NCBI GenBank assembly: GCA_933228675.1
Contig: OW121741.1
Location: 131,887,290 to 131,951,289 of the forward strand
DNA length: 64,000 nt
Source: Stomorhina lunata
Lineage: Eukaryota > Arthropoda > Insecta > Diptera > Rhiniidae
Direction of reading: 5' to 3'
The notes beneath the pieces were generated by a model. That model was not told the origin of the DNA, did not search any database, and worked only from the letters and a program-made list of their open reading frames with translations. This document shows positions 16,701 to 49,470 of the stretch, one piece after another. The translations under genes were made by a program, and so were the position numbers. Positions within the stretch are counted from its first letter, which is position 1. Every line of letters starts with the position of its first letter.

Positions 16701-18715
16701 AATAAAAAATGTAGCAAAAATTCACTACAAAAAAATTTTGTAGCAAAAATTTACTTAAGAAATTTTTGTAGCAAAAATTTACTAAAGAAATTTTTGTAGC
16801 AAAAATTGACTAAAGAAATTCTTGTAGCAAAAATTTACTAAAGAAATTTTTGTAGCAAAAATTAACTAAAGAAATTTATGTAGTCAAATTTACTAAAGAA
16901 AAATTTACTAAAGAAAATTTTGTAGCAAAAGTTTACCAAAGAAATTTTTGTAGCAAAAATTTGCTAAAGAAATTTTTGTAGCAAAAATTTACTAAAGAAA
17001 TTTTTGTAGCAAAAATTTACTAAAGAAATTTCTGTAGCAAAAATTTACTAAAGAAATTTTTGTAGCAAAAATTGACTAAAGAAATTCTTGTAGCAAAAAT
17101 TTACTAAAGAAATTTTTGTAGCAAAAATTTACTAAAGAAATTTTTGTAGCAAAAATTAACTAAAGAAATTTATGTAGTCAAATTTACTAAAGAAAAATTT
17201 ACTAAAGAAAATTTTGTAGCAAAAGTTTACCAAAGAAATTTTTGTAGCAAAAATTTGCTAAAGAAATTTTTGTAGCAAAAATTTACTAAAGAAATTTTTG
17301 TAAAGAAATTTTTGTAGCAAAAATTGACTACAGAAATTTTTGTAGCAAAAATTTACTAAAGAAATTTTTGTAGCAAAAATTCACTAAAGAAATTTTTGCA
17401 GCAAAAACTTACCAAAGAAACATTTGTAGCAAAAATTTACAAAAAAAAATTTTTGAGATAAAAATTTACTAAAGAAATTTTTGTAGCAAAAATTTACTTA
17501 ATAAATTTTTGTAGCAAAAATTTACTAAATAAATTTTTGTAGCAAAAATTTACTAAATAAATTTTTGTAGCAAAAATTTACTAAAGAAATTTTTGTAGCA
17601 AAAATTTACTAAAGAAATTTTTGTAGCAAAAATTTGCTAAAGAAATTTTTGTAGCAAAAATTTACTAAAGAAATTTTTGTAGCAAAAATTTACTAAAGAA
17701 ATTTTTGTAGCAAAAATTTACTAAAGAAATTTTTGTAACAAAAATTTACTAAAGAAATTTTTGTAGCAAAACTTTACTAAAGAATTTTTGTAGCAAAAAT
17801 TTATTAAAGAATTTTTTGTAGCAAAAATTTACTAAAGAAATTTTTGTAGCAAAAATTTACTAAAGAAATTTTTGTAGCAAAAATTTACTAAAGAAATTTT
17901 TGTAGCAAAAATTTACTAAAGAAATTTTTGTAGCAAAACTTTACTAAAGAAATTTTTGTAGCAAAAATTTACTAAAGAAATTTTTGTAGCAAAAATTTAC
18001 TAAAGAAATTTTTGTAGCAAAAATTTACTAAAGAAATTTTTGTAGCAAAAATTTACTAAAGAAATTTTTGTAGCAAAAATTTACTAAAGAAATTTTTGTA
18101 GCAAAAATTGACTAAAGAAATTTTTGTAGCAAAAATTGACTAAAGAAATTTTTGTAGCAAAAATTTACTAAAGAAATTTTTGTAGCAAAAATTTACTAAA
18201 GAAATTTTTGTAGCAAAAATTTACTTAAGAAATTTTTGTAGTAAAAATTTACTAAAGAAATTTTTGTAGCAAAAATTTACTAAAGAAATTTTTGACACAA
18301 AAAAATTACTAAAGAAATTTTTGTAGCAAATACTTCATTAGCAAAAATTTACTAAAGAAATTTTTTGTGACAAAAAATTTACTAAAGAAATTTTTTGTGA
18401 CAAAAAATTTACTAAATAAATTTTTTGTGACAAAAAATTTACTAAAGAAATTTTTGTAGCAAAAATTTATTAAAGAAATTTTTTGTCTCCAAAAATTTTC
18501 TAAAGAAATTTTTTGTGACAAAAAATTTACTAAAGAAATTTTTTGTGACAAAAAATTTACTGAAGAAATTTTTTGTGACAAAAAATTTACTAAAGAAATT
18601 TTTTGATCGAAAAAATTTACTAAAAAAATTTTGTGATACGGAAAAATTTACTAAAGAAATTTTTTGTTACAAAAAATTTACTAAAGAATTTTTTTGAGAC
18701 AACAAATTTAAAAAA
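16700..18715. repeat. 28 bp GTAGC satellite, changing to about 30 bp GTGAC units
   Basis: Units TTGTAGCAAAAATTTACTAA then AGAAATTT, 28 bp, very uniform from 17460 to 18290. A composite with ATTTATGTAGTCAAATTTAC occurs near 16872 and again 294 bp later. From about 18355 the linker becomes TTGTGAC with six-base A and T runs, giving about 30 bp units and spurious open frames. Orientation is ACTAAAG, opposite to the array at 20415-22130. Confidence 0.93.
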
Positions 18716-19209: not shown

Positions 19210-20364
19210 TTAATCATCTTCTACTGTTTCATTAGCCTCCGAAATTTTAAGGTTTTCATTGGTTATATCAGCCGAGGAGGGTCTCGAAACTGATAACTCA
19301 TTATCACTGTTATTGTAGTCCGTATCATTTTCTGCATTACCTATACTCGAGGGTGTATACAGATCCTCATTATAGGTAACGCGATCCATAAAGTTGCGTA
19401 TCTCATCAAAATACGAATCCTCACGATCAGCCTCATTCGAACTGGGCGAATCACTTATAGCCAAACCCAGGCCCGTGGTATCCGATTCATGTTTCTTTAG
19501 ATGACGATCCAAATTGGTCTGTTGACCAAAGCATCTATCACATAAATGACATCTAAAGGGTCTTTCTTTGTTGTGAATATTGCGCACATGTCTTTGCAAG
19601 TTCGAGGATATGCTAAAAGCACGATCACAATATTTACAGGTATAAGGCTGTTCCCCGGTATGGGTCCTCAAATGGCGCGTTAAATTGGCAGATCTTGGAA
19701 AGACCTTGCCACAAAACTTGCAGGTATAACGATCTTTTAATTTCCCGGATTGGGCCACTTGTAAAGCGGTTGACGAAAGACCTCTCAAGGCCTCATGAAA
19801 CATGGGCTCATTGACAAACTGTTGCTGCTGCTGTTGCTCCTCTCTAGCGCGCAAAGCATTGGCCTCTAGAGACGACCGTTCACTCATTAGTCCTAAAAAA
19901 GGAAACGGCCGCGGAAAGGTAGACTCCAATGCATGAGAGCGATAGATTTCATCAAGCAACATGGGATGTAAGGGGCGAGGGCATGGGGGCAAAGCTGAGG
20001 GATTAGTTTCTAAAGCCGCTGTGCTCGAGACATTGCATGGTGGTGAGGGTGATGGCGTGGGCCCTGGAGAGGCCGTAGGTGTACCACTGCTGTTTACTGA
20101 GGAATTGAAGAGTCTCGGCTTTTTTGTTATATGCTCATAGCTATCGTTATTGCTATGATCCTCATGGGCTATGGGACTGATTTCTCCCCGTATATTCAAA
20201 GTGCTATTGTTGCCATCGCGGGAGGATTTACGATCTTCTTGACTGAAGTTGGAGTCAATGCTATTGCGTTTGCGTGAAACACTTAGATCCAAAGGCAGTT
20301 CAGTGTATGATGATTTGGGCTCTACTTCAGGGCGGGGTGAGAGCGAGACAATGTCAATGGATTT
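19210..20364 (-). CDS. ham: hamlet terminal exon: PLDLS CtBP motif and C-terminal three-finger cluster
   Basis: 1155 bp, 384 codons plus TAA at 19210-19212, phase 0 start after a TTCCAG acceptor. The exon begins [31 protein letters not shown] contains PLDLS, the canonical CtBP-recruiting motif kept in EVI1, MEL1 and Hamlet, implying repressor activity. A Ser/Pro/Thr-rich segment ([17 protein letters not shown]) and a QQQQQQ run follow, then three C2H2 fingers ([51 protein letters not shown]) almost identical to the second EVI1 cluster. The tail is acidic ([10 protein letters not shown]). The open frame runs past the acceptor into satellite DNA up to 20433, but that part is intron. Confidence 0.96.
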
Positions 20365-20414
20365 CTGGAATAAGAAATAAATTTTAAAAATTAGTAAAGG
20401 GCTTATACTTCTTT

Positions 20415-22130
20415 CGAAAATTTTTTGTCTCAAAAAATTTTCTTTAGTAAATTTTTTGACTCAATAAATTTTCTCTAAAAAATTTATTTAGTAAATTTTT
20501 TGTCTCAAAAAATTTTCTTTAGTAAATTTTTTGTCTCAAAAAATTTTCTTTAGTAAATTTTTTGTCTCAAAAAATTTTCTTTAGTAAATTTTTTGTCTCA
20601 AAAAATTTTCTTTAGTAAATTTTTTGTCTCAAAAAATTTTCTTTAGTAAATTTTTTGTCTCAAAAAATTTTCTTTAGTAAATTTTTTGTCTCAAAAAATT
20701 TTCTTTAGTAAATTTTTTGTCTCAAAAAATTTTCTTTAGTAAATTTTTTGTCTCAAAAAATTTTCTTTAGTAAATTTTTTGTCTCAAAAAATTTTCTTTA
20801 GTAAATTTTTTGTCTCAAAAAATTTTCTTTAGTAAATTTTTTGTCTCAAAAAATTTTCTTTAGTAAATTTTTTGTCTCAAAAAATTTTCTTTAGTAAATT
20901 TTTTGTCTCAAAAAATTTTCTTTAGTAAATTTTTTGTCTCAAAAAATTTTCTTTAGTAAATTTTTTGTCTCAAAAAATTTTCTTTAGTAAATTTTTTGTC
21001 TCAAAAAATTTTCTTTAGTAAATTTTTTGTCTCCAAAAATTTTCTTTAGTAAATTTTTTGTCTCAAAAAATTTTCTTTAGTAAATTTTTTGTCTCAAAAA
21101 ATTTTCTTTAGTAAATTTTTTGTCTCAAAAAATTTTCTTTAGTAAATTTTTTGTCTCAAAAAATTTTCTTTAGTAAATTTTTTGTCTCAAAAAATTTTCT
21201 TTAGTAAATTTTTTGTCTCAAAAAATTTTCTTTAGTAAATTTTTTGTCTCAAAAAATTTTCTTTAGTAAATTTTTTGTCTCAAAAAATTTTCTTTAGTAA
21301 ATTTTTTGTCTCAAAAAATTTTCTTTAGTAAATTTTTTGTCTCAAAAAATTTTCTTTAGTAAATTTTTTGTCTCAAAAAATTTTCTTTAGTAAATTTTTT
21401 GTCTCAAAAAATTTTCTTTAGTAAATTTTTTGTCTCAAAAAATTTTCTTTAGTAAATTTTTTGTCTCAAAAAATTTTCTTTAGTAAATTTTTTGTCTCAA
21501 AAAATTTTCTTTAGTAAATTTTTTGTCTCAAAAAATTTTCTTTAGTAAATTTTTTATCTCAAAAATTTTTTATTTAGTAAATTTTTTGTCTGCAAAATTT
21601 TTCTTAGTAAATTTTTTGTTTTTAAAAATTTTCTTTAGTAAATTTTTTGTCTCAAAAAATTTTCTTTAGTAAATTTTTTGTCTTAAAAAATTTTCTTTAG
21701 TAAATTTTTTGTCTCAAAAAATTTTTTTTAGTAAATTTTTTGTTTCAAAAAATTTACTTCAGTAAATTTTTTATCTCAAAAATTTTTTATTTAGTAAATT
21801 TTTTGTCTGCAAAATTTTTCTTAGTAAATTTTTTGTTTTTAAAAATTTTCTTTAGTAAATTTTTTGTCTCAAAAAATTTTCTTTAGTAAATTTTTTGTCT
21901 CAAAAAATTTTCTTTAGTAAATTTTTTGTCTCAAAAAATTTTCTTTAGTAAATTTTTTCTCTCAAAAAATTTTCTTTAGTAAATTTTTTGTCTCAAAAAA
22001 TTTTGTTTAGTGAATTTTTTTGTCTCAAAAAATTTTCTTTAGTGAATTTTTTTGTCTCAAAAAATTTTTTTTTGTAAACTTTTTGTCTCAAAAAATTCTC
22101 TTTAGTAAATTTTATTTTTGATAAGTTTTT
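20415..22130. repeat. 31 bp GTCTC satellite filling a ham intron
   Basis: Units TTTTTTGTCTCAAAAAATTT then TCTTTAGTAAA, 31 bp, over 50 copies; from about 20500 to 21540 they are almost identical. The array fills nearly all of the 1788 bp intron (20365-22152) between two coding exons, leaving about 50 bp at the acceptor side and about 25 bp at the donor side. A block with TCTGCAAAATTTTTCTTAG appears near 21590 and near 21808, a local duplication. Confidence 0.95.
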
Positions 22131-22152
22131 TGGTAAATTTGGATTATCTTAC

Positions 22153-23079
22153 CTTATCATCTTCATTCATTTTTTGCGCCAGATCCTCCTCCTCTTCCTT
22201 TTTGATTTTAAGCGATTTCTCCTTCTTTACTTCCCCTTTTGTTCTTTCCAAAGAGCTGGGAATTTGCTCCCTTGACTCTTCATCCGAACTAAACCTTTGC
22301 TTTTCTCTCTTGGGGCTAAGCTCACTTTTGCCTTTCTGTTGTTCTCTCTCGAATTGAGGAAAATATAAGCCCGCCATATTCATCTCTTCCTTAGAGGAGC
22401 TCAAAGCTTTGTTCAGGTTATTGCTGTTGGTGTTGAGCGGATTTTGTTGAGGTGTTTGATTTCTCAGTTGTTGCATTTTAAAGTCCATATTGGGTTTCGA
22501 GAACATGGGCGAAAAGTTGGAGGTTTGTGTTACGGGAGGCTGAGGAAACATGCCCTGCAAACCAAAGGCCGCTGCCGCCGGAGGAAAGGCAGGGAAAAAG
22601 GTAGAGCGCCAAAATAGAAAAGGATTCGGTGGTGTATTCATATTGTTGCCCAAAGAACCGTTAACGGCCGAGGATCTTGATTGACTGCTGGAAGCCTGTG
22701 TAGCGGCTGGATGATGTAAAGAATGTGTTAGACTGGGGGGTAGACCTACACCCGCTGGCTGAACGTTGGTGGAATCACAAAATCTCTTGTGCTTCGACAA
22801 AGAGGTAACCGTACTAAAGCTTTGACCACACTTGCTGCACTTGATTTGCATGCGACAGTCGGCGTGCATGCGTCGGTGGCGACACAGGTTTGAGAATTGT
22901 GTATAGGCTTTGAAGCAGACCTCACACTGAAAGGGTTTAACGGAGGAATGGATGTGCGTGTGTTGTTTTAGGCCTGATGAGGTAGCAAATGTTTTACCGC
23001 ACTCAGGGCAAGCGTGACTTCTGGCTCCAACGTGATGGTTACGAATATGTCGCTGTAGATTTGAGGGATCACAAAATAC
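22153..23079 (-). CDS. ham: hamlet exon: fingers 3-6 and Pro/Ala/Ser-rich linker
   Basis: 927 bp, exactly 309 codons, phase 0 at both ends. The acceptor TTTGCAG precedes 23079 and the donor GTAAGA follows 22153. In order: the rest of finger 3 ([16 protein letters not shown]); finger 4 ([17 protein letters not shown]); finger 5 ([17 protein letters not shown]); and a C2HC finger 6 ([17 protein letters not shown], then KRFC). The links VGARSHA and HSSVKPF between fingers are close to EVI1. A linker of about 200 residues follows, with a hydrophobic [13 protein letters not shown] patch, Gln/Asn-rich stretches and a basic-acidic C-terminal run ([19 protein letters not shown]). Base composition is far less AT-rich than the flanking DNA. 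The family binds a GA-rich DNA site through this cluster. Confidence 0.95.
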
Positions 23080-24060
23080 CTGCAAATGGTCAGAAAAAGA
23101 AGAGATTTTTTCTATTATTATTTTTTTTTTTATTTGAAACAATTTGATTGATGTGTATTTTGTGTTGTTTTTTTTTCAACTTCTACTACTGATACACGAT
23201 TCCGTATTAATGGCTTAAGAAATACAACACAGGCCTAGCTACTGTATCTCTAGCTCAACAATAGCTTTAGCTCATATCAGACAAACCTTAAAATTTTAAC
23301 CAAACTTATTTTTTTACAACAAAAAAAAAAAAAAACCTTTGAGAGTGTAAAAAATCTCTTTTGAGGACAAATAATTAAAAAATATCATTCAAATAACGCT
23401 AGCACACTTTAAACTTGGACCAAAGATAACGAAAACTCTGTAATTAATCAATCATTCGCTAAGATGTTTATTGAATGAATTACAAAAAAAAAGACTCTAA
23501 CGCTGCTCATATACTCAATTATTTGAATTGTTCAAAATTCAATTGTCTAATTCGTAGAAGCCCGAAATAAAACCAACATTTCATTTTTTTCTTTTTTAAT
23601 TTTTTTTTTTTTTCTGAATAATAAATAATCAAATTTCTGTTCGCTGTGTTAAAAGCAGATTAGGCCGTAGAATATCGTCTTTCGAGCCAAATAACCCATT
23701 TCAAACAAGAAAATAAAAATCAACCAATAATCGAGCTATAAACCTCAAAGCTCTAAACGCTTGAAAACACCTACTTTCCAACAGTTACTTATTACGAATC
23801 GATGGCCATCAATTGTAACAATTGTCGTCATCGAAGTCGTCGTTGTTACCATAAAACAAAAGAATGCGCACATTAAGCCAAAAAAGCCATCCATCCGTCC
23901 GCCAAACATCGAGATAAAACACAAACCAAAACGAATTTAAATCTATGAGGTTAGAAGAAAGATGGATGGATGGACGGACGGCTGGAAAGACGGACGCAAG
24001 GACAGACAGACGGAATGACGGACAGAAATTTGTAGGGTCATAGTAAACTTTGTTGGAAGC
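23080..24060 (-). other. Ham intron, unique part
   Basis: Non-repetitive intron sequence. It includes homopolymer T and A runs (near 23115, 23320, 23600) and moderately complex DNA (for example ATTGTCGTCATCGAAGTCGT at 23820). No exon signals with a matching frame were found. A purine-rich GGATGGATGGACGGACGG-type tetranucleotide tract lies at about 23961-24025. Confidence 0.5.
23961..24025. repeat. GATG/GACG/GACA imperfect tetranucleotide microsatellite
   Basis: Runs of GATGGATGGACGGACGG, then GAAAGACGGACGCAAGGACA and GACAGACGG. Similar tracts (GACAGACAGACAGACG near 55675; GTCCGTCC-type near 15551) occur elsewhere in the window. Confidence 0.8.
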
Positions 24061-38500: not shown

Positions 38501-38925
38501 TTAGAATTTTCTTAAGGAAAATTTCAGATGTTGAAAATTTTTAGAAATAGAAAATTTTCTTAAGAAAACGGTACGATATTTTCTCGAGAACAATTTTGTA
38601 AATTTTTTTAAAAAAAGTTTAAATATTATGTGACCTTTTTAAAAATAGAAAATTTTCTTAAGAAAACGGTACGATATTTTCTCGAGAACAATTTTGTAAA
38701 TTTTTTTTAAAAAAAGTTTAAATATTATGTGACCTTTGGCCCCCATATATGAATTTTTTTTTTTAATAAAAAATTTGCAAAATTAAAAATTTTCTTGACA
38801 AAATTAAAAATTTTCTTGACAAAATTACTAAATTTTAAATTTTCTATAGAAAAATTTAAGAATTCGAATATTTTCTTAAGAAAAAGTTACTTCTTTTTCT
38901 TGAAAAAAATTTTATTAATTTCTTA
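35540..38925. repeat. TTTTCTTAAGAAAA satellite right of the foldback element, with about 530 bp higher-order repeat
   Basis: Diverged 27-31 bp units. A longer block containing TTGATACATAAAATTAGCAA occurs near 35734, 36277 and 36800, giving a three-copy higher-order repeat of 523-543 bp. Near 38550-38735 a segment of about 95 bp with AAACGGTACGATATTTTCTC is tandemly duplicated. Toward the right edge GTGACCTTT blocks appear, blending into the next repeat family. Confidence 0.85.
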
Positions 38926-39097
38926 AAAAGATAGTCCGTGACCTTTGAGCTTTTTAATTTGTAATATTTTGAAAATTTGTTAATTCAAATGTAGAAAAAT
39001 GTAAATTTTTAACAAATGACCTTTGACCTTATATTTTCTTTATATTTAATTTTCTTTATATTTTGATATAATTAAAAAAATTTCTTTCAAAACTCAC

Positions 39098-39254
39098 CTT
39101 AGTACAATTTTCACAAGGATATTTCCGTATTTCGTTGTGCTGTAAGGCTCGATGCTTCAACAACAAAGGACGATGACAGTAACGTTTCGAACACAATTCA
39201 CAGAAAAATTCGTCCTTACGAAAGTGATGGGCTCCCACCAAATGATCGTCGAGT
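39098..39254 (-). CDS. ham: hamlet exon: end of finger 1, finger 2 and start of finger 3
   Basis: 157 bp. The acceptor TTTCAG is just above 39254 and the donor GTGAGT just below 39098. It reads [17 protein letters not shown], then [20 protein letters not shown] and [15 protein letters not shown], ending in phase 0. Finger 2 is C-x2-C-x12-H-x4-H. The first two cysteines of finger 3 (CENC) are here and its histidines (LQRHIRNHH) lie on the next exon, giving [17 protein letters not shown], nearly identical to [17 protein letters not shown] of vertebrate EVI1. That match is the strongest support for the 16 kb intron splice to 23079. Confidence 0.92.
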
Positions 39255-40400
39255 CTGAAAGATAAAAATACGAAAAAGAAAAATATTAAATATAATTAGC
39301 TTAATCAACATGTGTCAAAATTCACACTCCATTTACTCAGTATTTTCAAATTGAAGTTCAATATTTACAGATTGAAATCTCGGTGACATGAAAACAAACT
39401 TTAGCTAAACAAATTTCTCCTTTTTTTCCTTTTCATACTAACGACTCGTGCAAATGAAGGCGTTTTATATTTGCATTTATTTTTTTTTTGTGTGTCAACT
39501 CCCATTTGTTGGCCCTTAAAAAAAAACTATACATCTGATAACTAGAAAAAACCCATCTAATTTGAAAACTTTGTATGTCAGGTTATTCTATATTTCTAGC
39601 ATTTTTTGTGATTTTTTTTATTTGCTTCCATGAAAATTTAGTTTATCGGAATACAAATCATAGGGTTTCATCAGTTTGCTGTTAGCACATGTCACATGTC
39701 CTTTTTTTCTAAAACTAACATAAGGGGAAGTATAGCCTAAATAAAAACATGCAAACTTCCCAAGTTTATATTAGAATCAAATGGAAAAGTTTTTTAAGCT
39801 TAGAAAAAATTCAGTTATAATAAACAAGTATTATTTTTAACTTTTCTGTATTGTTAATCTTTTCGGCTTACTTCCCTTAGCCTACCTTCCCTTTTACTAA
39901 TTCATTCATATGTTTTTTATTATTTCAAAGGTAAGTGTTTATCAGGTTGTTCAGGTTGAAGTGACTTTTATGTTTTATGATGATGATGATTTTTGTGATT
40001 TGTCAATTGCGTGTTGTTGAAAAATCAAAATTATCCATTAACTAAATATATTATTGAGTGTAAGTTAGCTCGCCTGACAAATCATATAGAAATATTTTTA
40101 TATTGTACATACAAACATTTGCTCAAATAAACATTTTAAAAATTTAAATATTCTATTTTTTGAACTGGATTTTATTAATGCACTTATAATAGTGAGTTTT
40201 TGTTTTTTTGAGTAAATAAATCATCAAATATTAAGTTGTAAATTTTTCAGTAAATATTAAGTAATTGAAGCTTTTTAAAGCAAATATTTGACATACAATT
40301 TTGCAAAATTTTTAACACATTTTCAAGCCAAAAGTGTTGAAATAAGAGATAAGTAAACAAGAATTTATCAATAATTTGTATGTTGCAGCTCAATTTTTCT
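39255..40400 (-). other. Ham intron, unique part
   Basis: AT-rich single-copy-looking intron sequence right of the zinc-finger exon. It contains a short GATGATGATGA microsatellite near 39978. No DR1 copy, exon or transposon end recognised. Confidence 0.5.
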
Positions 40401-42660
40401 ATTTTGAATCAATTTAAACGAAATTTAAGAATTTGACCTTTGACCTCTAAATCTCAAAATCTTGTAAATCAATGTAATTTACTTGATGTATGTAGCATAG
40501 TCTTTGAAATATCATCTTCGCTTGAGAAAAATAACATATTCTTTGAATTAACCTAAAAATCTATGAATTTTTACAATTTGACCTATGACCTTGTGTTTCA
40601 AAATTAAAAAAAAAATCCAACTTATATAATGCAGAATTAAGGTTATCAGCTTAACTTGCTAAAAAAGTACTTTTTTCGTTTAATTTCTCTAAAAATCTAT
40701 GAATTTTTCAAATTTGACCTTTGACCTCATACAACAAAATAAAAAAAATTTGTATTGAATTTTACGAAAAATATGTGTTATATAATTTAATGTCGAAATT
40801 CATATAAAACAACCAATTTTTATAAAAGTATAGTAATATTTAAAATCTGACCTTTGACCTCATAATAGAAAATTTTTGAATTTTATAAAAATTTTGAAGC
40901 AAAATTTAGTTGAAAAATATATTTTATATGATTTTATGTCAAAATTCTTATAAAACAACCAATTTTTTAAAAAATCCATGAATTTTTAAAATCTGAACTT
41001 TGACCTCATAATAGAAAATTTTTAAATTTTATAAAAAATTTAAAGCAAACATTTTTTTGAGCTAAAAAATTTAAAGCAAAACTTTTTTGAGTTAAAAAAA
41101 GAAGCAAATATTAAATATTTGTGTTATTTTGCATTTTTAAGCACAGGCTTAAGAAGTTCTTTCAATTTTCCTGAGAAAACTTGAAATTTTCAAAATATAA
41201 CCTCTGACCCTTTAAAAGTTTTAAGGCGAATTATATAAGAAATGTGATAAAAAATAATGAAATATTATTAACGGTGGACTTATTTAAAAAAAAAAAGAAA
41301 ATTAAAAAAAATATCCCTGAAAATCTCTGAACTTTTAAAGTTTGACCTTTGTCCCCACATGACAAAATATGAAAATTTTGAAAATGTTAAGAATGTAAAA
41401 GTTTGTAAATGTTAAGAAGAAAAATACTTTATATGATTTTACTTTGATTTTCTAATAAAATGAACTATTTTGAAAAAAATCCCTGATTTTTGAAAAAATG
41501 ACCCATGACCTCTTAATAAAGAAATTGTTAATTTTATAAATAATAAATAGACAAAATTATGAAATATTAAAATTTTTTAGCTACTCTAGACAAGAAAAAC
41601 AGACTTCTTTGTATTTTATACAGAGTTATTGAAATTAAAAATATTGACCTTTGACCCCAAATGTTTGATTTCTTAGAATTTTATTAAATTTTTGAGAATA
41701 TGAAATAAAATGAAATGTTATGAACGGTGGAATTTTTTTTGAAAAAAAATTGAGAATTTTTAAAAATATCCCTAATAATCTATGAATTTTTAAAGATTGA
41801 CCTTTGACCTGATATGACAAAATACGAAAATATTGTACAAAATGTTAAGAAGAAAGATATTTTATATGATTTTACGTTGATTATCTTATGAAATTAACTA
41901 TTTTTATAAAAATCCCTGATATTTGAAAAGTTGACCTATAACCTCTTAATAAAAATTTGGTTTTTTTTATAAATAATAGAAAAAATTATGAAATATTTGA
42001 ATTTTTTAGCTACTCCAGACAAGAGAAACAGATTTTTTTGTATTTTATTGAGAATTACTGAAATTGAAAAATATTGACCTTTGACCCCGAATGTAAAATC
42101 TTTGTATTTCTTAAATTTTTAAGAATAGATAAACTTGTGTGATATTTTCCGAACAAATATGGACAATTTCTAATAAAATCAATAAAAATATTATAGTTTT
42201 ATAAACTTAACCTTTGACCTGAGAAGTTGAAAATTACTTTTTGAAGGAATTAAAGGAATTTTTAAAATTATTTGAATTTGTATAAACATTTTTAAGGCAT
42301 TTGCAAGCTTTTTGGTAATTTAATTAAAGAAAATTGGAAAATGACCCTTGACCTCTTAAACTAAAACTAGTGAAATTGCTTCAAATTTTAGGAATATTTT
42401 AATTTTTATGTTTTTCTATGGTTATGGCATCAATCTACACACTTTTTGTAATAAAATATATAAAATTATATGATTTCGAAAATTTTGACCTTTGACCCCT
42501 TGACTAAAAAGTTGTGATTATATCATAGTTTTCAAGTTGAATATATTTCTGGTTATGTATTGGCATATTATTCCCAGTAAAATAATTTATTTTCTAAAAT
42601 TCTTCAATAAGTAACATAAATTTACAAAGTGTGACCTTTGACCTCTTTTTTAAAAAGTTA

Positions 42661-43720
42661 GGAAATTTCTTTAAAAGTTTTAAATTCAAGTCTTAGTTAG
42701 TTTAGTATAAAAAATAGGAAAGGATTTAATAAATTTGAGGCTTTAAAACTAAAATTATTAAGTTTTCAATAAATTTCACAAAATTTGTATTTTCCTTGAA
42801 TTTTTTGACTTTGAAGGACTTATAAAACGTGATTTGAAAATATTTTAAAAAAATTTCTTTTGATTTTAATTGTCTGAATTGTTCTGAATAGAATATGTTT
42901 TAAAAAAATTAACATTTTTTAAAATGTTTAAGCAAAATTTTTAAAAATCGAAAAATATAGTTTTGAAACTGCTGTGAGCTTAAAGGTATAGATTAAATAG
43001 TAATATAGCAGCAAAAACCATTCTTTTTCGCTATCTTAAGGTTTTTATATTTGTTTCAGTTAGGCTGAGATTATTTTAGCAGATCTGAAGCGAGTTTAAT
43101 TTTTTAGCTTCATAGGAAGTAATTTTCCGCTAAAACAATTTAAAAGCAATTTATGTCAAAATTTAATTAGTTGTTCTAAATTATATGAAATTTATGTTTT
43201 TTTTTTTTGCTTTATATAAAAATATAGTTTTATTAAATATATATTTATTGTTAATTGTTTCCCTATATGCCCTTAAACTAAAACGATTAAACCCTTTTTT
43301 CTTCATATTCATTTTATTGTTTCATGAATTATATCAAAACATAAATGAAAAATGATTGAACGTTTTTCTTTTGTGTTTGTCCAGTTTTCTTCCTTGGGGT
43401 TATTGTTTAAACAGGAGGTGTGTTGATGAGTAAATGACAAATTAATAAAAATAAATCGTTAACAATTTTCAAACATTGTAATTATCACCTAAAGGTTGTT
43501 TTTTTGTTTTCTTCTGATTGTTCAGGGGCTATTCATAAGGTAAATTACTAAATTTAATTACTCTCAAGGGGATTTTCTTGTTTTATATGAAATAAAAGAC
43601 ATTGATTGTCTTTTTTTGTGTGTTTAATTATTGGAAATTAAGTTTAAGCTTTAGTTGAATGTTTGTTGGGAAATATTTATATCTTGGTTGACACTCGTAT
43701 ATTATTTAATAATTACTTAC
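42661..43720 (-). other. Ham intron, unique part before the 43721 exon
   Basis: AT-rich, non-repetitive. It contains no TGACCTTTGACC copy, although the family lies on both sides. The 43715-43720 end is the GTAAGT donor of the neighbouring exon on the minus strand. Confidence 0.5.
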
Positions 43721-43868
43721 GTTTCTAATTCTATAAATGTTTTATCGCAGACTTCACAGCGTATATCAAAACCGTTTTCGTCATCACTTAATTCACTTTT
43801 CAGATGATCCGAAGATTTGTCTTTTTTGTAATCGTCGTCACGGGTTAAATTGGAACCGTAAAAGGAGG
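43721..43868 (-). CDS. ham: hamlet exon: linker and first visible C2H2 finger
   Basis: 148 bp: two bases finish a codon, 48 codons follow, and two bases start the next. The acceptor TTTTTCCAG precedes 43868 and the donor GTAAGT follows 43721. The product is a charged linker (SFYGSNLTRDDDYKKDKSSD, then HLKSELSDDENGFDI) followed by RCEVCDKTFIELE. This finger is completed across the splice as [16 protein letters not shown], a C2H2 finger with x2 and x4 spacing. The exon sits between two blocks of the DR1 repeat array (to 42644 and from 43953), so that repeat family flanks it closely on both sides. Confidence 0.9.
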
Positions 43869-43899
43869 CTGGAAAAAGCAAGAGAGAGAAAAATTTAAA

Positions 43900-45920
43900 G
43901 AATTATCTTAAAAAAGTGTAAATTTTGGGCCAGGGAGTCATTTTTCTAAAAATGACCTCTGACCTTAAAGGCCGCAAAAAGTTTTTTAGGATGAAATGTA
44001 TAAGATTTTGTAGCTCTTAATGATTACATGAGATAATTTCGAATAAATAAAGGGTATTTTGTAACATTTTTGTAAAAATCGTAGAATTTGGAATATGACC
44101 TTTGACCTGGATTTTGTAAAACAAAAGATTTTACTGAACTTTGAGGAATATATGATCGATTCTTTATATTTTAAGAATAAGTTTTCATAAACTTCAAAAT
44201 ATTTGCCAACTTTTCCTTACAATAAACATTTTTATAAATGTGACCTTTGACCCACAAGGCTTAAAATAGCTTTTAAGGCAAAAATTTTAATTACTTTGGA
44301 GCTTTCGATGATTCGATGAGGTATTTACTAATAGATTTTAAGTTTGTCCTAATATTTTTGTAGAAATTTAGGAATTTTATAAATGACCTTTGACCCGACT
44401 TTGACTAAACTTTGAAAAAATTGGGATTCTACTTAATTTTGAAGAATATTCGTCTTGAATATAATACTTCAAATTGTTGTCTAGGAAATCTATACGTTTT
44501 GGGAAGTTATTTATGATAATTTTGAAAAATTTGTAAAGAAAAACTAAATAACTTAAAAAAAATTTTAGTACGACCTCAAAAATTTGACATATGACCTAGA
44601 AGAGGGAAATACCATTTTATTGGTAATTAGAAGATAACACATGATTGTATAATCCTTTATTGTTATTTAAAATATTTCCAACAATTCTAGTGTTCAAAAT
44701 TTGACAAATGAATATTTCAGACAATTTTTCTTAGAAAAATGCATTTTAAAAAAATTTGACCTTTGACCTAGATTATACAAATTACAATATTAATATTAAA
44801 TATTAAAATTTAAAGCGTTTCGTCATCTATTTTGATTTAAGAACAATTTTAAATGATATTCGAGTTAAAAACGAAATTTTTCTTTTGGAGTTAAACATTT
44901 TCAAAAACTTGACCTTTGCCCTTAAAGAGAGAAAACCAATTTTTTGCTCAAATTGAACACTATTGCATTAAATGATTGCTAAAATTATCTTTTAAGAGTA
45001 ATTAGCTCATTTCGACTATGCATTTTATTGTAAAAACCAGTTTAATAAAAATGACCTTTGACCTAGCCAGTAAAAATTATGATTCTGTACGAAATTAAAG
45101 TAATTTTGTATTAAATTTGAATTATATAGTAATTTTAAGGAATTCTAAGTGTACTTTTATATAGTTTGTGAAAAGTTAAAATTAATTAAAAATATGACCT
45201 TTGACCTAGAAGGGGGAAAACACTGAATTTGTCCAATTTTTCAGGTCTTATATATGAAATTGTTTTGATAATTACTCAAAAAAAAATTAAATTTTTAAAA
45301 CTTTGTTCATTCAAAAAATTGAATTTAAAAAATTTGACCTTTGACCTAATTGTAGATAATTGCGTTTCGGACTAAAATTTTGTTATTCTTTGTAACTACT
45401 ATCATTTTGAGAATGTTTCTTTTAAATCCTAACTATTTTCATGAGAAATTAAACATTTTCAGAAACTTGACCTTTGACCTAGAATCATTAAAACAACCTT
45501 TTATACAAATTTTAAAGCTTTTTCAATTGTTAATGATCTTTTATTGTTACTATTTATTTCATACTGAATTTTTCTTAACAAATTTTATCAGAAAACCCGA
45601 ATTAGATCATTTTGACCTTTAACCTGGTGAATTAAAGTTTCGATTTTTGATTAAAATTTAAAGCATTTTTGTATTTATTACGTTCTTTAGAATAACTTTC
45701 AAGCAATTAATCATTTTTGGTAGGAATTAGAATATTTTAAGACTCTTGACCTTTGACCGAGTATGATTTTTTGTTAAAATTTAGGAACTTTTAAATCCGA
45801 ACTGTTAAAATTTGTATGACTTAAGAATTTTTAATAAACTTTTCTATTACTGAATATTTTCAACAATTATTCTGAGAGAAAAGTAATTTTAAAAATTTGT
45901 CCTTCGAACGGGATTGTTAA
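43900..45920. repeat. DR1-containing intronic repeat array, block 2
   Basis: Exact TGACCTTTGACCT at 44096, 44757, 45052, 45195, 45335 and 45468; TGACCTTTGACCC at 44241 and 44384; TGACCTTTGACCG at 45747; variants near 43953, 44587, 44909, 45612 and 45898. Spacing is about 130-150 bp. Sequence around the motif has drifted far more than the motif itself: one copy to the next shares little beyond the 13-mer and general AT-richness. Orientation is the same as block 1. Confidence 0.9.
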
Positions 45921-47560
45921 AATTTCGAGTCAGATAAAAAATTTAAGAGCTTTTTAAAAGATCGAATTTTTATAATTTTGGAAAATATAAAAAAAGTTCT
46001 AATTCTTGATGAAATTTTTTTTTAATTTTTTTGATTTTTTGAAATATTTTGAAAATTCTTTAATTTAAAAAAAGTTAATGTAATTAAAAAAATTATATTT
46101 AAAAAAAATCAATATTTTTATTTAAATTTAAGAAAAATTTGATAGTTTGTGAATTTTTGATAGTTTTTAATTTTCCACTAAAATTTTTGTTTATAGAAAT
46201 TTTAATTTTTTTTTAACAATAATTACTTTTTCTTGTTGTTTTGATTAAATTTTTTAATTAAATGTTTATCACTTTTTGATGAAACTTTTCGTCAATTTCT
46301 TTAGTGTTTTTTTGTAATAATTTTAGTTGACTTTAAGGTTTTTTTTTTAATATTTATTTCGATAATTTTTAAGGAGACGCTGCAACCGAACTCTTCCGTT
46401 TCCGTTGAACAAGTGTTTGACCATTGAATCCTTTTTCACGTCAAGTGTCCTTTATGTGAAGTTTTTCTATAATTTCAATTTTAGTATTTTTGCTTCAAAA
46501 AATAAAAAATACACAAGGACTCATTGTCTCTGTACATTTTTCCTATAGACTAAACATATTCATATGAATAGATAATTGGCCTTTGTATTTAACGTGTAAA
46601 AAAACACCGAGAGTAGGGGAAAAACACCCTCATCTTTTTTATATGGTTTAAATAAAATTCAATAATTTTTGAGACCATAACACCCCTAAAACTTAGCTAG
46701 ACTTACAAGAAGTGACTCAAAACCAACACCTGAGTTGAAAAACTTCAGGACTTCAAAAAACCTTTAACAAAGAGTTTAAATTTTTAATTTAAATTAAAGC
46801 AAGTGTGTGCTAGAAGTAAGACGGGTATATCCCAAAAAACAAGCTTCATTTAAAAAATCCTAGAGGAAAAATCAAATTCTTCGTGGTCAATTATGAAAAG
46901 TCACTTTTAGTTGAAAACAGGTACTTTTTTTTCGAGTCAGGGTGTTTTCATTTGTTGGTCATTCTTTAGGGGATGTTTAGTGTAGTTTTGTTTATGTTTG
47001 ATGTCGCAAAGATTTCCTTGGCCACGCTGGACTGATTTTTCGTGATAGTGAACCCTATTTTAATTTTTCAAATTCATATGTCAAATGTTAAACTTCTTTT
47101 TCTTGTGGTCTTTTGGCCATAAAGTTAGGAAAACATTATTTAGCCCAGATGTTCTTGTTTTAGAAAGAAAGAAGGTGGTAGTTAAAATACTTGACTTTTG
47201 GTGGCAAAGGGCTATTGCTATTAACTGACTCTCTTTAGTGTTTAAGGATTTTTCCTGAACTATATTTTCACTGAAAATACACTAATTATTTGTGTAACTC
47301 TTGAAAGAGGGTTCAAAAAGTCAAATGTAATGAAAACAACGATGACATAAAATTGGGTGGTAAATAGTCAAGAAGGGCACCTGTTTCAAATTCCCACGCA
47401 ATTTTGAATTAATGAAAAAAAAGTTTTGAAAATTTGAAAATTTTTGAAATACCAAAAAAAAAACCGTTACTTTTGTTTTTTCTCACTCAAAAATTCAAAA
47501 TAATTGCAACTTTTTTTCTAGAATAATTTTTTTATAAAACTTTAATTATGAATTGTTTAC
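45921..47560 (-). other. Ham intron, unique part
   Basis: AT-rich diverged start, then non-repetitive DNA of higher complexity (for example GGAGACGCTGCAACCGAACT at 46372; TTGGCCACGCTGGACTGATT at 47018) that splits the DR1 array. No open frame, exon signal or transposon end recognised; possibly an inserted or ancestral single-copy intron segment. Confidence 0.45.
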
Positions 47561-47569
47561 AATATGCAT

Positions 47570-49470
47570 TTTTGATAAATATGACCTTTGACCTTGAAGG
47601 CATAAATAGCTTTTTTGGCTAAAATTTTGGGGTTTAAGGAGCTCTTTATGATCTTAAGTGATAATAACTAATAAATTTTAGATGTTTTGTAACTTGTTTG
47701 TCAAAATTATATGTAAAATTTGAATATGACCTCTGACCCAAATTTTAAGAAATCATTATTTTACTGAACTTTGAGGAATATATGATAATTTTTTTATTTG
47801 TGAGTACTTTGTCTTAAAATTTAAAATATTTCCAAACTTTTTCCTTAGTACAAAAGTTTTTATTAATTTTGACCTTTGACCCAAAAGACAGAGAATAGTT
47901 TTTTAAGCTAAAATGTTGAGGAGCTCTTACTGAGCTAATAAAGTAGTAACTAAAAAGGTTTTTCGTAACAATTTTTGAAATTTTAATTTTGACGTTTGTG
48001 AATATATAAGATTTTATTGAACCTTGATAAAAATATGATGGAATATTTTTAATTTAAAAATAATTTTTGAAAATAAAAATTAAAATATTTCAAACTTTTT
48101 TCTTGAAACAATCTTTTTTATAAGTATGACCTTTGACCTTATTGGCAAAAATAACTTTTTTGGCTAAAATTTTAAAAATTTAGGAGCTCTATACGATTAT
48201 ATAAAGTTATTCCTAATAAATTTTAGCTATTTCGTAATATTTCTGTACAGTTTTTAGAAGCATAATTTTGACCTTTGACCCTAATTGTTAATAAAAAGAT
48301 TTTACTGAACTATGATAAATATATGACTGAATATTCTTAATTTAAGAGGGATTTTTGAAAAAAAAAATAAAAATTTCAAACTTTTTCCTTAAAACATATT
48401 TTTATATAAGTGTGACCTTTGACCTTGAAGGCTGAGAATAGCATTTTTGACTAAATTGTGGAAAATTTAAGAGCTCTATATAATTCAATTAAATAATTAC
48501 TAGTACATTTTTGGTATTTCTTAACGCATTTGTAAAATTATGAATATTTAAATTTTGACCTTTGACCCTTGTTTTAAAAAAACCCAAGATTTTACTTAAA
48601 TTTGAGGAATATATGATTGTATTTGTATATGTTAAGAAATAACTTCTTATAAAATTCAAAATATTTGAAATTTTTTTTTTTTTTAAATAAACGTTTTTTT
48701 TATAAATGTCACATTTGACCTGGAAGACGAAAAATATCTTTTTCGGTAATAATTTTAAAAATTAAGGAGCTTTATGTGATTTAATTTAATAATTGCTTAT
48801 ACAATTTAGGTATTTTGCAACGTATTTTTAAAATTTTGATTTTGATTTTAATTTTGACCTTTGACCCGAATTTTAAAAACTAAGATTTTACTGAAATTTG
48901 AGGAAAATATTATTGATTTTTTTTCGGTTAAGTTTAAGTTTGTAGTAAATTCAAAATATAAGCAAACTTTTCCCTAAAACAAACATCTTTTTAAATCTGA
49001 CCTTTGACCTCGAAGAAGGAATATAGCTCTTTCAAAGCCAAATAGCGAATAGAGGTAATTTCTAATAATTTTTAAGTATTTCGTATGACATATGCAAAAC
49101 TTTTCATTGCAAAATACCATTTTTGGAAATGTGACCTTTGACCTTAAAACTTAAAAATTTGCTTTTTTGGCTAAAATTTTGAGACTTTAGGAGCTTTTAA
49201 TGATCTGATCTGATAACTACTTGAAATTTTTTGATATTTCTTAACATTTTTGTAAAAATCATAGAATTTTAAATATGACCTTTGAATCGAATTTATAAAA
49301 ACTGGGATTTTAGTGAACTTTGAGTGGTATTTGTAATTAAAATTTAACCTAGGCTTGTTTCCTAAGAAGTTTTTATATATTTTATAAAATTTTAGAGAAA
49401 ATAGAAAAAATTTTAAAATTTGACCTTTGACACAGAGTTCGAAAAATAAATTTTGGAACAAAATTTAACA
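47570..49470. repeat. DR1-containing intronic repeat array, block 3, with about 287 bp dimeric period
   Basis: TGACCTTTGACCT at 47582, 48127, 48413, 48998 and 49132; TGACCTTTGACCC at 47870, 48269, 48556 and 48855; variants near 47725, 48708, 49276 and 49420. T-ending and C-ending copies alternate roughly every 143 bp, so the true unit is a dimer of about 287 bp (47582 to 47870, 48127 to 48413, 48269 to 48556). Unit context such as GGCTAAAATTTT and GATTTTACTGAACTTTGAGG recurs with the dimer. Confidence 0.92.

What the first reader, a model, noticed from the sequence alone, without database searches (positions are those of the whole stretch)
39017..49432. Several dozen consensus DR1 nuclear-receptor sites tandemly arrayed in hamlet introns
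Seen: TGACCTTTGACCT at 17 positions and TGACCTTTGACCC/G at 10 more, plus about 15 near copies, all in one orientation, about 130-145 bp apart, across 10 kb and on both sides of two coding exons. Known: AGGTCAAAGGTCA is the ideal direct repeat with 1 bp spacing bound by HNF4, RXR/USP, COUP-TF (Seven-up) and related receptors. The 13-mer is better kept than the roughly 120 bp around it in blocks 1 and 2, which suggests selection on the motif, gene conversion, or recent spread. Inference: this could be a homotypic enhancer or a receptor-titrating decoy satellite in a gene that acts in sensory-neuron lineages, where Seven-up is a known regulator.
Basis: partly seen in the sequence, partly recalled or inferred. 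Interest (0 to 1): 0.9.

Follow-up and report, generated by a model that had tools for sequence, protein, structure and literature searches.

The report
Receptor-site repeat arrays in hamlet introns
Introns of a fly nerve-cell control gene hold dozens of copies of a hormone-receptor-type DNA site inside an old repeat whose other letters have almost all decayed, and the same site recurs in a like array in a second control gene, which suggests that something still reads the site.

Summary
In detail: 27 exact TGACCTTTGACC sites, all on one strand, and 43 repeat units in three blocks beside two exons of a hamlet-like gene. The 12-bp site is far better kept than its unit: mean pairwise identity 0.91 against about 0.39 for flanks; in alignable subfamilies flank distance is 0.46-0.65 against 0.06-0.08 in the site. 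Remaining variation falls mostly on the spacer and first purine, as in a DR1 nuclear-receptor site.

It is not private to hamlet. Genome-wide the 13-mer occurs 426 times against 30 for its reversed control; a DR2 version 20 against 6. Closely spaced pairs lie at 42 loci. The array with the next most exact sites found is in a spineless/AhR intron, again beside a coding exon. A third array keeps the site while its flanks differ by 54%.

Best reading: old, short tandem arrays kept as multi-site platforms for a sequence-specific protein, probably a DR1-type nuclear receptor. A cis role in hamlet is plausible but unproven; a satellite box serving only the repeat itself is the main rival.

The parts
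38730..39029 (+). Three DR1-like sites (38730 with 2 mismatches, 38939 with 1, 39017 exact to the 13-mer) below exon 39098-39254, beside a 98-bp/31-bp AT-rich array; not counted among the 43 units
39098..39254 (-). Coding exon of the hamlet-like gene, C2H2-like ([25 protein letters not shown]...)
   Evidence: AG/GT splice sites and open frame; Pfam zf-H2C2_2 E 5e-4, below the curated cut-off
40434..42644 (+). Block B1: 16 repeat units each with a DR1 box, in the intron between the two exons
43721..43868 (-). Coding exon (SFYGSNLTRDDDYKKDKSSDHLKSELSDDENGFDIRCEVCDKTFIELE)
   Evidence: AG/GT splice sites and open frame
43953..45910 (+). Block B2: 14 repeat units each with a DR1 box (last one with 4 mismatches)
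47582..49433 (+). Block B3: 13 repeat units each with a DR1 box, A/B dimer order, plus one decayed unit near 47990; related to B2
19210..20460 (-). Open stretch with C-terminal C2H2 fingers of the hamlet/MECOM/PRDM16 family
22144..23175 (-). Open stretch with further C2H2 fingers of the same gene (same strand; joining inferred)

Best explanation
The arrays are old, short tandem repeats in introns. In each unit only a 12-13 bp DR1 box (sense strand RGGTCAAAGGTCA) has been kept, by purifying selection, because a sequence-specific protein binds it. The protein is most likely a DR1-binding nuclear receptor of the COUP-TF/Seven-up, RXR/Usp, TR2/4-Hr78 or HNF4 kind (candidates recalled). In hamlet and spineless the many equivalent sites form a multi-site platform that raises or represses the gene. 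Shown: the sites, their order and orientation, the sharp excess conservation, DR1 specificity genome-wide, and recurrence in spineless and at 42 loci. Inferred: protein binding, which receptor binds, and the effect on transcription.
For: Site identity 0.91 against 0.39 in flanks, best other 12-column window 0.55. Subfamily distances 0.65 and 0.46 in flanks against 0.058 and 0.075 in the site. Sharp edge at position 14. 7 of 25 core changes fall on the DR1 spacer (7 of 43 against 18 of 473 cells, P 0.0026), and the first half-site base is A27 G14 C2. 13-mer 426 against 30 for the reversed control, DR2 version 20 against 6. Same pattern at spineless (flanks differ 0.378, site 0.096) and at a third array (0.535 against 0.062). 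Hamlet and the main spineless array lie beside coding exons of minus-strand genes with the box in the same orientation. Parallel: mammalian tandem repeats that keep PU.1-type motif clusters while unit sequence varies (PMC13373173).
Against: No binding, chromatin or expression data. Arrays occur at 42 loci, most of unknown gene context, and some belong to a dispersed repeat family, so the box may serve the repeats. One close pair of units shows no site constraint (41499/41932, flank 0.161, site 0.167). In spineless a few units seem to have lost the site (gaps of 270 and 260 bp; 27 flank-model hits for 24 units) and two exact sites and a near copy are reversed. Faint shared A/T patterns leave common descent open. 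Whether arrays favour transcription-factor genes could not be tested.
Confidence: 0.45

Rival explanations
1. Satellite box serving the repeat itself: the DR1 box is bound by a host protein, or used in recombination or insertion, in a way that promotes spread, homogenisation or packaging of arrays, like a CENP-B-box-type motif. Its presence in hamlet and spineless would be incidental.
For: 42 loci hold closely spaced pairs; a dispersed family carries the box alone and in short tandems. Precedent: a 17-bp Box 1 conserved among nematode satellites that are otherwise as little as 32% alike, at monomer junctions (PMC3694981).
Against: The half-site pattern and DR1 spacing specificity fit a receptor. 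About 12 of 21 sampled loci show the site with no recognised repeat around it, though all were picked for holding it. The two arrays richest in exact sites lie in introns of two transcription-factor genes (two cases only).
Confidence: 0.3
2. Neutral turnover: units with an intact box are the ones that duplicate, or short conversion tracts refresh the box, so it looks conserved without any protein.
For: Higher-order A/B dimers and recent pairs show that units do duplicate. Within units the box is the longest shared stretch, so it could seed exchange.
Against: Conversion limited to 12-13 bp with a sharp edge is not a known tract length (recalled). Flanks of most units are diverged near background, so few units are recent. 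It does not explain the variable spacer or DR1 specificity outside large arrays.
Confidence: 0.12
3. Receptor decoy: the arrays mainly titrate a DR1 receptor away from other genes.
For: 43 near-ideal sites in 9 kb at hamlet and 426 exact 13-mers genome-wide.
Against: Hamlet's sites are only a small share of the 13-mers in the genome (17 of 426), so titration by this locus would be weak; a decoy needs no intron of a transcription-factor gene.
Confidence: 0.05
4. RNA-level role: GGUCAAAGGUCA in the nascent transcript is what is read.
For: Same orientation to transcription in hamlet and in the main spineless array.
Against: No Rfam match at gathering threshold in 36-52 kb. Two exact spineless sites are reversed. 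Genome-wide the 13-mer lies on both strands, 229 and 197, though gene strands were not known.
Confidence: 0.05

Closest known systems
MORC3-repressed tandem-repeat enhancers, IFNB1-MRE and TWIST2-MRE (PMC13373173; outline with abstract and sections 10, 12, 13 read)
   Same: Tandem repeats, in introns in the Focad case, with dozens of sites for one factor class; across mammals unit size and consensus vary while the motif cluster is kept; a second locus has the cluster without overall similarity.
   Different: There the sites are PU.1/SPI and activity is shown; here the site is a DR1, one per unit of about 133-156 bp, in an insect, and activity is untested.
CENP-B box and box-like motifs in satellites (nematode Box 1, PMC3694981; abstract and section 13 read)
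   Same: A short motif kept in otherwise diverged tandem repeats.
   Different: Different motif; here the arrays studied are short and intronic, the motif reads as a DR1, and junctions at the box were not tested.
Nuclear receptors on variant telomere repeats (PMC7691514 passages; PMC11194075 and PMC13187458 search listing only)
   Same: COUP-TF and TR4 class receptors bound to tandem DNA.
   Different: Hexamer telomere repeats in human ALT cells, no DR1 box in a long unit; the cited paper argues the receptor role there is indirect.
Homotypic transcription-factor site clusters in fly enhancers (search listing only)
   Same: Many sites for one factor near a developmental gene.
   Different: As recalled, those are not tandem-repeat units spread over kilobases and several introns.
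Euchromatic 1.688 satellite arrays of the Drosophila X bound by Painting of Fourth (PMC5788526, search listing with start of abstract)
   Same: Short satellite arrays outside heterochromatin linked to protein targeting.
   Different: No 12-bp receptor box is known to me there (recalled), and the role is chromosome-wide.

Membership tests
DR1 nuclear-receptor response element | Two RGGTCA half-sites in direct repeat with one base between | tested here: met
   26 of 43 units exact over 12 bp, consensus RGGTCAAAGGTCA; consensus definition recalled
DR1 nuclear-receptor response element | Half-sites constrained more than spacer and first purine | tested here: met
   Spacer 7 of 43 changed against 18 of 473 other cells; first base A27 G14 C2
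DR1 nuclear-receptor response element | Bound by a receptor dimer in the cell | not testable with these tools
   No binding data held
Homotypic motif-cluster tandem-repeat enhancer (MRE-like) | Tandem repeat with tens of sites for one factor class | tested here: met
   43 units, 27 exact 12-mers in the window
Homotypic motif-cluster tandem-repeat enhancer (MRE-like) | Cluster kept although unit sequence varies | tested here: met
   Within this genome: hamlet, spineless and a third array; relatives not available
Homotypic motif-cluster tandem-repeat enhancer (MRE-like) | Enhancer or repressed-enhancer activity | not testable with these tools
   No reporter or chromatin data
Satellite with CENP-B-box-like motif | Short motif conserved across diverged units | tested here: met
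Satellite with CENP-B-box-like motif | Similarity to the CENP-B box itself | not tested
   No alignment to a CENP-B box was run
Satellite with CENP-B-box-like motif | Array or unit transitions located at the box | not tested
   Unit junctions were not mapped

The most novel reading that the evidence does not exclude
This fly genome holds a class of regulatory tandem arrays defined only by a DR1 box about every 130-185 bp. Unit sequence drifts freely or arises anew while the box is kept, and the largest arrays sit inside introns of neuronal selector genes (hamlet, spineless), where they act as high-copy nuclear-receptor switches.
Probability: 0.25. Interest if true: 0.9.

Novelty: new variant of a known kind. 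Interest (0 to 1): 0.7.

Why it matters
Repeats are usually masked and treated as neutral. Here a repeat that has decayed to near background keeps one receptor-type site in most units, at hamlet, at spineless and at a third locus. If receptors bind, it is an insect counterpart of the mammalian motif-cluster repeats, found from sequence alone, and it offers a direct test of how many weakly selected sites one gene can hold. My paper searches showed no report of DR1 or nuclear-receptor-box satellites in insects; some searches listed only part of their hits, and the library covers open-licence papers only.

Tried and rejected
Loose pairwise alignment of flanks was uninformative: shuffled flanks also aligned at 0.73 and 876 of 903 pairs lay within 2 sd of that. 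I replaced it by anchored columns, subfamily alignments and motif-masked profiles. The hit list was cut, so I rely on the block counts; there the models were trained on the same units, so 'no unit without the site' is only weakly tested.

I first took B1, B2/B3 and spineless as unrelated in sequence. The A/T profile test shows B1, B2 and B3 share a faint pattern (lag 0 ranks 1 of 51 in all three pairs); spineless ranks 3 of 51 and family F 2 of 51 against each hamlet block (spineless against F ranks 11), so distant common ancestry is not excluded. The pooled masked model gave two marginal spineless hits, one on each strand.

Spacings in hamlet fall in groups near 134, 144 and 153. A helical-turn rule is tempting, but the Gaussian null ignores shared descent and the 25 other loci spread over 128-157 without such groups, so I do not claim it.

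The scan of viral contigs gave three hits in prokaryotic elements, with no sign of relation to the fly arrays. Rfam: no match at gathering threshold in 36-52 kb. Whether arrays lie near transcription-factor genes in general did not complete (PF00046; PF00105; PF00010).

Full report
What is there. The window carries 17 exact TGACCTTTGACCT and 10 TGACCTTTGACC[C/G], all on the plus strand, between 39,017 and 49,144, with near copies among them. A first-order Markov model expects 0.0007 exact 12-mers in that length. Leaving out three sites below 39,030 that lie beside another AT-rich array, one decayed unit near 47,990 and chance 4-mismatch hits, there are 43 units in three blocks. With the decayed unit included, 37 of 41 within-block spacings lie between 125 and 165 bp, mean 142.8; the others are 120, 172, 201 and 204.

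Gene. The minus strand encodes C2H2 fingers whose named relatives in the list are hamlet-like, MECOM/EVI1 and PRDM16 proteins (120 of 1523 hits were listed, the best of them unnamed, and full-length fly hamlet was outside the length range of that search). The two exons among the arrays, 39098-39254 and 43721-43868, have proper splice sites and finger-like translations; the first gave a Pfam hit below the curated cut-off and the second was not searched, so their place in the same gene is inference. The sense strand carries GGTCAAAGGTCA.

The site is kept, the unit is not. Anchored on the site, mean pairwise identity is 0.875 over 13 columns (0.867, 0.876 and 0.889 in the three blocks) against 0.394 in flanks, where composition alone gives 0.324. 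The 12-column site scores 0.907; the best other 12-column window scores 0.547. The edge is sharp: the base after position 13 is C13 T10 G9 A11. In the two subfamilies that still align, flank distances are 0.65 and 0.46 and site distances 0.058 and 0.075. Of four closer B1 pairs, three show a slower site and one (41499/41932) does not. A neutral star simulation at per-lineage divergence 0.2 and 0.33 gives a mean of 7.3 and 2.6 exact units of 43, with maxima of 17 and 10 in 500 runs; 26 are observed. The simulation ignores shared ancestry, so it may overstate the contrast.

The variation looks like a DR1. In the 12 core positions 25 of 516 cells differ from consensus; 7 of these are at the spacer (7 of 43 against 18 of 473 elsewhere, Fisher P 0.0026). 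The first half-site base on the AGGTCA strand is A 27, G 14, C 2. That is the RGGTCA-N-RGGTCA logic of nuclear receptors (consensus recalled).

Genome-wide. The window lies in a 728-Mb genome of 104 contigs. The exact 13-mer occurs 229 + 197 times, its reversed control 16 + 14; only the first 100 places were listed. The DR2 version, one base longer, occurs 7 + 13 times, control 4 + 2. Pairs of 12-mers on one strand number 8, 48, 19 and 9 at spacings 97-127, 128-158, 159-189 and 190-220, with no control hit in any bin. Clustered within 15 kb, these rows fall at 42 loci, 26 of them in the 128-158 bin; hamlet gives 13 of the 48 pairs and spineless 6. Of 21 sampled loci outside hamlet and spineless (L004-L007, L015-L031), two hold small tandem pairs, 7 I assigned by eye to one dispersed repeat family, and 12 showed no shared flank apart from one similar pair, L018/L022. 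All were picked because they hold the exact 13-mer.

Spineless. The array with the next most exact sites found is at C1:13441348-13444734: 25 listed sites with up to 2 mismatches, 14 exact, unit about 133 bp. Beside it a minus-strand exon encodes the bHLH of the aryl hydrocarbon receptor (E 5e-23), and PAS-like exons on the same strand lie further along at 13,392k and 13,381k (found with recalled patterns); the insect AhR is spineless (recalled). All 18 exact 12-mers in the 230 kb read lie between 13,437k and 13,451k, on both sides of the bHLH exon; two of them, and a near copy, point the other way. Aligned flanks differ by 0.378, the site by 0.096. Gaps of 270 and 260 bp, and 27 flank-model hits for 24 units, suggest that a few units have lost the site. 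Motif-masked models of the separate hamlet blocks find no spineless unit at E 0.01 and the reverse also holds; B2 and B3 models find each other, and B1 finds two hits in B2 and one in B3. The pooled model gave two marginal spineless hits. A/T profiles correlate best at the right register among B1, B2 and B3, and faintly with spineless.

A third array, C7:22558600-22560600, gene context unknown, has 14 sites with up to 3 mismatches (8 exact) on one strand at irregular spacing; over the 13 used, some with overlapping flanks, flanks differ by 0.535 and the site by 0.062; the B1 masked model gave one hit there, the other three none. A small array at C11:102954100 has six units with at most one mismatch each.

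Interpretation. The excess conservation, its sharp edge, its half-site pattern and its repetition at three loci with different flanks are best explained by a protein that reads this site. An ideal DR1 points to nuclear receptors of the COUP-TF/Svp, RXR/Usp, TR2/4-Hr78 or HNF4 kind (recalled). That the two arrays richest in exact sites lie in introns of hamlet and spineless, two transcription-factor genes with roles in sensory neurons (hamlet in olfactory neurons, spineless in R7 photoreceptors; PMC5899351 passages), favours a cis-regulatory platform, but it is two cases and the general test did not complete. The closest parallel is the MORC3-repressed tandem repeats, where PU.1-type motif clusters are kept while unit sequence and length vary, and a second locus has the cluster without overall similarity (PMC13373173). 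The wide scatter of arrays means that a box serving the repeat itself remains a serious rival, as for the nematode Box 1 (PMC3694981). Binding, activity and conservation in relatives could not be tested here.

Noticed in passing
L001:3564-3775; L002:5931-6087; L003:402-558: Three IMG/VR contigs from prokaryotic elements carry tandem TGACCTTTGACC: in L001 a 22-bp iteron-like array, in L002/L003 a cluster between two genes. They look like an independent use of the same 12-mer, perhaps replication iterons.
   Followed up: partly
L017, L021, L023, L024, L025, L026, L027: A dispersed repeat family around TGACCTTTGACC[T/C]CGG...AAAG...GGTTAA carries the same DR1 box in single copies and short tandems across the genome; its ends were not mapped.
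   Followed up: partly
window:30708-35314: A 179-bp satellite with an open 70-aa frame per unit, on the minus strand up to about 32.7 kb and on the plus strand after it, so the array is inverted.
   Followed up: no
window:9669-11119 and 18309-18697: Short-unit tandem arrays open in several frames (repeats of KFTKEIFCTK type) in the same gene region.
   Followed up: no
window:36024-38170: A 31-bp AT-rich array built on TTTTCTTAAGAAAA; its 98-bp end copies carry TGACCTTT and TGACCTTTGGCCC.
   Followed up: no
window:40434-49421: Spacings between boxes group near 134, 144 and 153 bp, and A/T tracts keep fixed places around the box (T at -28 and -8, A at -3 and +24, T at +34).
   Followed up: partly
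L013:6501-9709: A long array of short units (KNFSIENFFI-type frames) on the other side of the spineless bHLH exon.
   Followed up: no
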